Positions 13,866 through 56,728 of a DNA stretch of 57,321 nt are shown one piece after another; the stretch's first letter is position 1, and each line of letters begins with the position of its first letter. The DNA lies in NCBI GenBank assembly GCA_024699645.1, contig JAILPE010000059.1:1-57321 (forward strand), given 5' to 3'. The DNA comes from Lachnospiraceae bacterium (GTDB lineage Bacteria > Bacillota > Clostridia > Lachnospirales > Lachnospiraceae). The notes below the pieces were generated by a model. It was not told the DNA's origin. It was given only the letters and a program-made list of their open reading frames with translations, and made no database searches. A program made the position numbers and the translations under genes.

Positions 13866-14213
13866 ATGAACGACATTATCAAAAACATCGAAGCTGCTCA
13901 GTTAAAGAGCAACATCACCGAATTCAGTGTAGGTGATACAGTTAAGGTTTCATCACTCGTTAAAGAAGGAAACCGCGAAAGACAGCAGGTATTTGAAGGC
14001 GTAGTTACCAAGAGACAGAACGGCGGCGCAAGAGAGACATTCACAGTCAGAAAAATCTCAAACGGTGTCGGTGTAGAAAAGACATGGCCTCTTCATTCTC
14101 CTATCGTTGCAAGCATTGAAGTTGTAAGACATGGTAAGGTTAGACGTGCCAAGCTGTTCTATCTTCGTCAGAGAACAGGTAAGGCTGCAAAGGTTAAGGA
14201 AGTTATCCGCTGA
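13866..14213 (+). CDS. rplS: 50S ribosomal protein L19
   Basis: Large-subunit protein at the 30S-50S interface. Diagnostic segments are [48 protein letters not shown] and the basic end [21 protein letters not shown]. The length of 115 aa is normal. AGGAGG precedes the ATG. It is followed by a strong terminator, so lepB onward needs another start. Confidence 0.98.
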
Positions 14214-14263: not shown

Positions 14264-14293
14264 AAGGGAACGGCTTTGGTCGTTCCTTTTTTT
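14264..14293 (+). terminator. Rho-independent terminator of rplS
   Basis: AAGGGAACG pairs with CGTTCCTTT (one GU pair) around an eight-base loop and runs into seven T residues. The region 14294-14436 beyond it is AT-rich; I see no clear promoter or small gene in it. Confidence 0.85.
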
Positions 14294-14436
14294 GTTGTTA
14301 TTTTTGCCTTTAGGATATAAAATGAATATGTCTTTGAATTTGGGTTTATCGATAATTTATATGATAAAAATATTCAAAGATATAGATTACCCCCAATATG
14401 AATTACACAGGGGGCAAAACTTGTTTCAGAGGTTTT

Positions 14437-15042
14437 ATGGATACTGATTTTGAATTTGATTTTGATAAACAGGAAAAGAAAAGTAAAAGATTTAAACTAA
14501 TCATAAAAGTAATGCTCTGGATAGGCGTTGCTTGCATTGCAATCTTATTGGGCTGGTTATTCACAGCTGTTGCTCTCGAAAAAACAAATATGGTCGGAAG
14601 CGGTATGGAACCTACTCTTTCCGATGATGATATAATCATTGTAAACAGAATGGCTTATCTGTTCTCGGATCCGGAAAGATATGATGTGATCGTTTTTAAT
14701 AAAACCGGAAAAGAGCACAGTTATTATGCATGTCGTAGAGTATACGGACTTCCGGGTGAAACTGTGCAGATAAAAGACGGTAAGGTTTTCATAAACGGTA
14801 ATGTTATAGAAGAAGTCATAAATGCCGAAGAAATGATCACCTCGGGCTTGTTTGAAGAAGAAGTAACCCTTGATGAAGATGAATATTTTGTTCTCGGTGA
14901 CAACAGAAATGATTGTGAAGACAGCAGATATTTCAATTTCGGTAATGTGACCGGAAATGAGATAATCGGCGAAGCATTTGTCAGGCTATCACCATTCTCG
15001 ATAATCAGTAAATTAAATCTTATCAAAACAGAGGAAGAATAG
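14437..15042 (+). CDS. lepB: signal peptidase I homologue lacking both catalytic residues
   Basis: S26-family membrane protein: a charged N-terminus, one transmembrane helix (about residues 25-46), then the periplasmic beta-fold. Box E (GDNRNDCEDSR) and box D context (GLPGETVQIKDGKVFING) are well kept. However, the catalytic serine before M-x-PTL is glycine (VGSGMEPTL, Gly56) and the general-base lysine before R-V-x-GLPG is arginine (CRRVYGLPG, Arg100). Both codons are unambiguous and the frame is open. The start at 14437 has CAGAGG upstream; the track start at 14398 has none. It sits in the conserved slot before ylqF. Staphylococcal SpsA is a known inactive homologue, so a pseudoenzyme role is plausible. 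Confidence 0.85.
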   Translation: MDTDFEFDFDKQEKKSKRFKLIIKVMLWIGVACIAILLGWLFTAVALEKTNMVGSGMEPTLSDDDIIIVNRMAYLFSDPERYDVIVFNKTGKEHSYYACRRVYGLPGETVQIKDGKVFINGNVIEEVINAEEMITSGLFEEEVTLDEDEYFVLGDNRNDCEDSRYFNFGNVTGNEIIGEAFVRLSPFSIISKLNLIKTEEE

Positions 15043-56108: not shown

Positions 56109-56728
56109 TAAATTCTAAAAAGACCGATGACAATACCGAGGATTTCACAATTATCAACAATGATAGGATCCATTGTATCATTCTCAGGCTGAAGTCTGAT
56201 ATGGTCTTTTTCTTTATAGAACGTTTTAACCGTAACACTGTCATCGATCAAAGCAACGACCATGTCTCCGTTATTGGCAACATTCTGTTGCTTCACAAGT
56301 ATTTGATCACCGTCAAAAATACCTTTGTTTATCATGCTCTGCCCTTTTACCTTCAACATAAATGTTTTTGAATTGGGCAGGTAATCGATAGGTATCGGGA
56401 AATAACCGTCAAGATTTTCTACAGCCAAAATAGGAGTACCTGCAGTAATAGTACCTACAATAGGAACATTAGTGACTTCTTTTCTCATGGAATTGAATTC
56501 TTCATCAACAAGCTCTATTGTACGCGACTTTGCGCCATCACGCTTAAGATAGCCTTTTTCTTCAAGCGCCTGGAGATGCGAATGAACCGTTGATGTCGAA
56601 CTGAGCTTAACTGCATTACAGATTTCACGAACCGAAGGCGGAAAACCTCTTTCGATAATAAATTCTTTAATGAAATCAAGGATCTGTTGTTGTTTAACTC
56701 CGGGAGTCATTTTCTTTTTTGCGCCCAT
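56105..56728 (-). CDS. lexA: SOS repressor LexA
   Basis: Represses DNA-damage genes and cleaves itself with RecA filaments. A winged-helix domain (QQQILDFIKEFIIERGFPPSVREI) precedes the cleavage site A96-G97 (ITAGTPI) and the Ser131 (KGQSMI) - Lys168 (TVKTF) dyad. I start at 56728 (MGAKKK), nine bases after AAAGGA; the track adds 12 codons. At 207 aa it is normal. Its promoter carries two dyads consistent with self-repression. Confidence 0.96.
   Translation of the reverse strand: MGAKKKMTPGVKQQQILDFIKEFIIERGFPPSVREICNAVKLSSTSTVHSHLQALEEKGYLKRDGAKSRTIELVDEEFNSMRKEVTNVPIVGTITAGTPILAVENLDGYFPIPIDYLPNSKTFMLKVKGQSMINKGIFDGDQILVKQQNVANNGDMVVALIDDSVTVKTFYKEKDHIRLQPENDTMDPIIVDNCEILGIVIGLFRIY

What the first reader, a model, noticed from the sequence alone, without database searches (positions are those of the whole stretch)
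14437..15042. Signal peptidase I homologue with both catalytic residues replaced
Seen: the serine of the SM-x-PTL box is glycine (codon GGT at 14602-14604) and the lysine of the KR-V-x-GLPG box is arginine (CGT at 14734-14736), while the fold motifs GDNRNDCEDSR and GLPGETVQIKDG remain. Known: these two residues are the Ser/Lys dyad of LepB, and S. aureus SpsA is a precedent for an inactive homologue. Inference: a LepB pseudoenzyme kept in the conserved slot beside ylqF, perhaps a regulator or substrate-binding partner of an active peptidase elsewhere.
Basis: partly seen in the sequence, partly recalled or inferred. Interest (0 to 1): 0.8.

Follow-up and report, generated by a model that had tools for sequence, protein, structure and literature searches.

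The report
Conserved dead signal peptidase look-alike
A gut-bacterial gene that looks like the enzyme which trims exported proteins has lost its cutting residues, yet selection still preserves it next to its housekeeping neighbours while a separate intact enzyme presumably does the cutting; relatives in the same bacterial family have lost the same residues many times independently.

Summary
The 201-residue ORF at 14437-15042 is a clear S26 signal peptidase I homologue (TIGR02227 125 bits). It has Gly56 (GGT 14602-14604) at the nucleophile and Arg100 (CGT 14734-14736) at the general base. A third catalytic-site residue, E. coli Ser278, is Cys160. It is not a sequencing error: three other species, assembled independently, carry the same G/R/C set, and two sisters carry S/R/C. 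The genome has one other S26 gene, beside ftsH, with an intact Ser/Lys dyad.

In Lachnospiraceae two S26 paralogues commonly flank ylqF. The rplS-side paralogue forms one clade (SH-aLRT 96.8) and has lost Ser at least 7 times and Lys at least 10 times. Losses outside that clade: 0 of 121. Across six close species the gene is more conserved than the intact peptidase of the same genomes (78% against 70.5% identity); dN/dS is 0.066 in the one unsaturated pair. So it is a selected pseudoenzyme, not debris. Its function is inferred: non-cleaving peptide binding at the export site. S. aureus SpsA and S. pyogenes SipA are precedents; the recurrent loss in a housekeeping slot appears undescribed.

The parts
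14437..15042 (+). S26 signal peptidase I homologue without a catalytic dyad (201 aa), first gene after the rplS terminator
14428..14432 (+). AGAGG ribosome-binding-like site for the start at 14437
   Evidence: read directly; homologues begin at the same Met
14461..14574 (+). N-terminal helix (residues 9-46), including the single predicted membrane anchor
   Evidence: AlphaFold2 model helix 9-46; hydrophobic run in the translation
14602..14604 (+). Gly56 codon GGT at the nucleophile site (Ser in active enzymes)
14734..14736 (+). Arg100 codon CGT at the general-base site (Lys in active enzymes)
14914..14916 (+). Cys160 codon TGT at the position of E. coli Ser278
14264..14289 (+). terminator-like hairpin with T tail between rplS and the S26 gene, so the S26-ylqF-rnhB run probably has its own promoter
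   Evidence: the scan finds 2 such sites against 1.4 expected, so weak on its own
13866..14213 (+). rplS (ribosomal protein L19), upstream neighbour
   Evidence: TIGR01024
15048..15914 (+). ylqF (ribosome biogenesis GTPase), begins 5 bases after the S26 stop codon
   Evidence: TIGR03596
15936..16694 (+). rnhB (ribonuclease HII); the second S26 gene that many Lachnospiraceae carry between ylqF and rnhB is absent here

Best explanation
The gene encodes a membrane-anchored, outward-facing signal-peptidase-I paralogue that can no longer cut. The general base, the residue that positions it and finally the nucleophile have been replaced (K to R, S278 to C, S to G), while the fold and the peptide-binding strands stay conserved. 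It most likely works by holding signal peptides or other extended peptides of exported proteins at the translocation site without cleaving them, as an adaptor or competitor for the intact Ser/Lys peptidase encoded beside ftsH. Shown: residue loss, its recurrence, purifying selection, an intact peptidase elsewhere, and a SipA/SpsB-like model. Inferred: lack of activity (about 0.88), peptide binding (about 0.5), and any partnership with the active enzyme (about 0.3).
For: Dyad absent in the window and in three other species. Intact second S26 gene in the same genome and in 22 of 24 genomes of the genus (the other two are 66% and 71% complete), and in all ten further genomes with a dyad-less copy that were checked. 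Strong constraint: 78.1% mean amino-acid identity among six species against 70.5% for the intact peptidase of the same genomes, dN 0.145 against 0.212. The one pair well below saturation, G012-G023 (both G/R), has dN/dS 0.066 against 0.108. In 180 of 231 genus pairs the slot-A protein is more conserved than the intact peptidase. The strands that bind peptide in S26 (around 48-61 and 95-102) vary less than the rest of the ectodomain (mean entropy 0.69 against 0.92), while residue 56 itself varies. The model's closest complete-domain match is SipA 4n31 (TM 0.79, rmsd 2.8), and SpsB is also matched. SipA has a conserved cleft, no Ser/Lys and no detected peptidase activity, yet is essential for its process (PMC4049620).
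Against: No activity or binding measurement exists for this protein. SipA, the best precedent, showed no peptide binding in vitro. The structure model is of middling confidence (pLDDT 74.8). Most sister proteins of the genus keep Ser56, so part of the clade may retain a Ser-dependent activity. No partner gene co-varies convincingly.
Confidence: 0.55

Rival explanations
1. A redundant copy under decay: a second signal peptidase that the cell no longer needs, still open only because loss is recent or because it sits in an operon with ylqF.
For: Repeated independent loss of the dyad, and of the Arg of GDNR in some dyad-intact copies, shows relaxed catalytic constraint in this paralogue clade.
Against: dN/dS about 0.03-0.11 (saturated dS in most pairs), 0.066 in the best pair; the protein is more conserved than the intact peptidase of the same genomes; open in all six species; relocated copies outside the operon are kept too.
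Confidence: 0.1
2. Still a peptidase using other residues: Ser55, Cys160 or another nucleophile with Arg100 in place of Lys.
For: Arg100 is nearly fixed after the change (19 of 20 in the genus) and Ser56 stays in most Arg-bearing sisters. Cys at the Ser278 site arose about four times, three of them in Lys-less lineages (crude P 0.015).
Against: Ser55 is not conserved in the clade and already coexists with Ser56 in G017. No conserved Lys replaces the base. Arg is a poor general base (general knowledge). Other lineages carry G/Q, N/A, Y/E and A/R pairs, which no single alternative chemistry explains.
Confidence: 0.1
3. A SipA-type factor dedicated to sortase-dependent pilus or surface-protein assembly.
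For: Best complete-domain fold match is SipA; all six species of the immediate clade carry two sortase genes.
Against: No pilin or sortase gene lies at the locus. G006 (100% complete) keeps a Lys-less copy but has no sortase hit, as do five other genomes of the genus.
Confidence: 0.1
4. Sequencing or assembly error in the window.
For: The genome is a fragmented assembly (123 contigs).
Against: Three independent assemblies of other species carry the same Gly, Arg and Cys.
Confidence: 0.01

Closest known systems
Streptococcus pyogenes SipA (pilus assembly factor, PDB 4n31)
   Same: S26 fold, membrane-anchored, Ser and Lys of the dyad both replaced, Ser278 position replaced, peptide-binding cleft kept.
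   Different: SipA has Asp/Gly, lies in a pilus operon with a class B sortase and has lost Gly272; here it is Gly/Arg, in a ribosomal/housekeeping slot, with Gly272 (Gly154) kept.
Staphylococcus aureus SpsA
   Same: Dispensable SPase I paralogue lacking both catalytic residues, alongside an essential active enzyme (PMC12445088).
   Different: Replaced residues differ (from memory), as does the locus (from memory SpsA is next to spsB; here the intact gene is beside ftsH on another contig).
Active type I signal peptidases (LepB, SpsB, SipS; TIGR02227)
   Same: Whole-length profile match, single N-terminal anchor, boxes B, D and E.
   Different: Nucleophile, general base and Ser278 all replaced.
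Phage 186 repressor CI (LexA side of the superfamily)
   Same: Also has Arg at the catalytic-base position (PMC12984324).
   Different: A cytoplasmic DNA-binding regulator of the other family of the superfamily.

Membership tests
Type I signal peptidase (S26A) as an active enzyme | S26 sequence profile over the whole domain | tested here: met
   TIGR02227 125.2 bits against cut-off 47; PF10502 120.3 against 22.9
Type I signal peptidase (S26A) as an active enzyme | catalytic Ser in box B | tested here: not met
   Gly56
Type I signal peptidase (S26A) as an active enzyme | catalytic Lys in box D | tested here: not met
   Arg100
Type I signal peptidase (S26A) as an active enzyme | Ser of box E (E. 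coli Ser278) | tested here: not met
   Cys160
Type I signal peptidase (S26A) as an active enzyme | Gly272, Asp280 and Arg282 equivalents | tested here: met
   Gly154, Asp162, Arg164
Type I signal peptidase (S26A) as an active enzyme | cleavage of pre-proteins | not testable with these tools
   needs an assay
Non-catalytic SPase I homologues (SpsA, SipA kind) | S26 fold with both dyad residues replaced | tested here: met
Non-catalytic SPase I homologues (SpsA, SipA kind) | an intact SPase I elsewhere in the same genome | tested here: met
   L001, VISGSMEDTL and FVKRIIGLPGD
Non-catalytic SPase I homologues (SpsA, SipA kind) | maintained by purifying selection | tested here: met
SipA pilus assembly factors | gene inside a pilus operon with a sortase | tested here: not met
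   neighbours are rplS, ylqF, rnhB

The most novel reading that the evidence does not exclude
The rplS-ylqF-slot S26 paralogue of Lachnospiraceae has a non-catalytic job of its own (a signal-peptide-holding factor beside the active peptidase). Once that job exists the dyad is free to be lost, and it has been lost about ten times independently, in the window's genus in the order Lys first and Ser later.
Probability: 0.45. Interest if true: 0.75.

Novelty: new variant of a known kind. Interest (0 to 1): 0.52.

Why it matters
Curated models name this protein 'signal peptidase I' with high scores, so genomes of a major gut family are probably over-counted for active signal peptidases, which matters for secretome prediction and for judging arylomycin-type drug targets. 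The repeated, clade-restricted loss of catalysis under strong purifying selection gives natural replicates for asking what a signal peptidase fold does without cutting, a question SpsA and SipA have left open.

Tried and rejected
Shift of the dyad by one residue (Ser55): rejected, position 55 is variable and coexists with Ser56 in a sister. Sequencing error: rejected. SipA-like sortase link as a general rule: not supported, Lys-less copies persist in a complete genome with no sortase hit. A functional hint from neighbours of relocated copies: they lie next to xseA, with divergent pilT in some and another gene in others, so no consistent partner. A single K-to-R event in the genus: neither shown nor rejected (AU p 0.145); four Ser/Lys-intact species nest inside the Lys-less ones, so there were two or more losses, or one loss and a reversal, or the tree is wrong there. 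One useless lookup was made. Paper searches for pseudo-signal-peptidases in Lachnospiraceae found nothing.

Full report
Observation. The reading frame at 14437-15042 encodes a 201-residue protein with an N-terminal membrane anchor and a full-length S26 domain. In addition, the Ser of box E that positions the lysine in E. coli (Ser278; see PMC4049620) is Cys160. Other S26 landmarks (Gly154, Asp155, Asn156, Arg157, Asp162, Ser163, Arg164, GLPG) are intact.

Not an artefact. Six species of the genus form a tight clade. Four of them (window, G002, G012, G023) have Gly/Arg/Cys and two (G017, G011) have Ser/Arg/Cys. They come from separate assemblies.

The genome has an intact copy. The only other S26 match in the 2.13 Mb, 93% complete genome is L001, next to ftsH, with GSMEDTL and FVKRIIGLPGD. 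The only S24-type match is at 56126-56464, LexA-sized and probably LexA. A dyad-intact S26 gene was found in 22 of 24 genomes of the genus; the exceptions are 66% and 71% complete. It was also found in all ten further genomes with a dyad-less copy that were examined for it.

Context. In Lachnospiraceae a common order is rplS - S26(A) - ylqF - S26(B) - rnhB. The window keeps A and lacks B. The rplS gene is followed by a terminator-like hairpin, and the S26 stop codon is 5 bases before ylqF, so S26-ylqF-rnhB is probably one transcript. In ten species of the genus the A gene is not beside rplS or ylqF in the fetched stretch. In the five of these that were examined it precedes xseA.

Recurrence. 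From 241 S26 proteins of the genus, family and some outgroups, aligned and put on a tree built without the dyad columns, the A paralogues form one clade of 120 (SH-aLRT 96.8). Thirty-two of these lack Ser, Lys or both: G/R, A/R, A/K, G/Q, N/A, Y/E, S/Q, S/S and S/R. Outside the clade none of 121 lacks either (one entry is truncated before the Lys site). Parsimony needs at least 7 changes at the Ser site and, leaving out the truncated entry, 10 at the Lys site. The A clade holds about half the tree length, so chance confinement of independent losses to it has a crude probability of 0.01 (Ser) and 0.001 (Lys). The set was sampled by similarity to the window protein, so the rates are not family-wide estimates. 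In the genus Lys is lost in 20 of 24 species but Ser in only 5, all of them Lys-less, so there Lys goes first. Elsewhere two A/K proteins show that the order can differ. Whether the genus lost Lys once or more often is undecided.

Selection. Among the six species the pseudoenzyme is 78.1% identical on average, the intact peptidase 70.5%, YlqF 86.3% and RnhB 78.0%. Mean dN is 0.145 against 0.212 for the intact peptidase. Synonymous sites are saturated in most pairs. The one pair with dS well below 1 (G012-G023, both Gly/Arg) gives dN/dS of 0.066 against 0.108 for the intact peptidase. Decay is thus disfavoured. Within the Lys-less set of the genus, the strands flanking the peptide-binding cleft vary less than the rest of the ectodomain.

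Structure. A model from 16 sequences (pLDDT 74.8) matches SpsB and, over its whole domain, SipA of S. pyogenes best (4n31, TM 0.79, rmsd 2.8). SipA lacks the dyad, keeps the cleft, shows no detected peptidase activity, and is essential for pilus polymerisation, but no peptide binding could be measured.

Mechanism. The most likely reading is a non-cleaving, membrane-bound peptide-binding paralogue working near the translocon alongside the intact enzyme. That it does not cut is likely (about 0.88, inference from residues). That it binds signal peptides or pre-proteins is plausible (about 0.5). That it regulates the active peptidase is a guess (about 0.3). A sortase/pilus role is not general: Lys-less copies persist in genomes with no sortase hit.

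Known versus new. Inactive SPase I homologues are known (SpsA, SipA), and Arg at the base position is known in phage 186 CI. A clade of dyad-losing paralogues in the rplS-ylqF slot of Lachnospiraceae was not found in the paper searches, which cover open-licence papers only.

Noticed in passing
L210:1447-2004: In genome G348 another S26 protein has VDGPCMESTL with YVKRIIGLPG: nucleophile Ser replaced by Cys with the Lys kept, a possible natural thiol signal peptidase.
   Followed up: partly
L010, L017, L020 (and L015, L023): Lys-less slot-A copies of several genus members lie in front of xseA, with a divergent pilT on the other side in three of the five examined.
   Followed up: partly
A clade, position of E. 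coli Ser278 (window 14914-14916): Cys at this site arose about four times, three of them in Lys-less lineages; unexplained.
   Followed up: partly
slot-A copies such as L081, L082, L088, L097: Dyad-intact slot-A copies often replace the Arg of GDNR (Val, Cys, Trp), which slot-B copies never do in this set.
   Followed up: no
L016, L013, L014, L079: Four Ser/Lys-intact species nest inside Lys-less relatives; a regained lysine is not excluded (AU p 0.145).
   Followed up: partly
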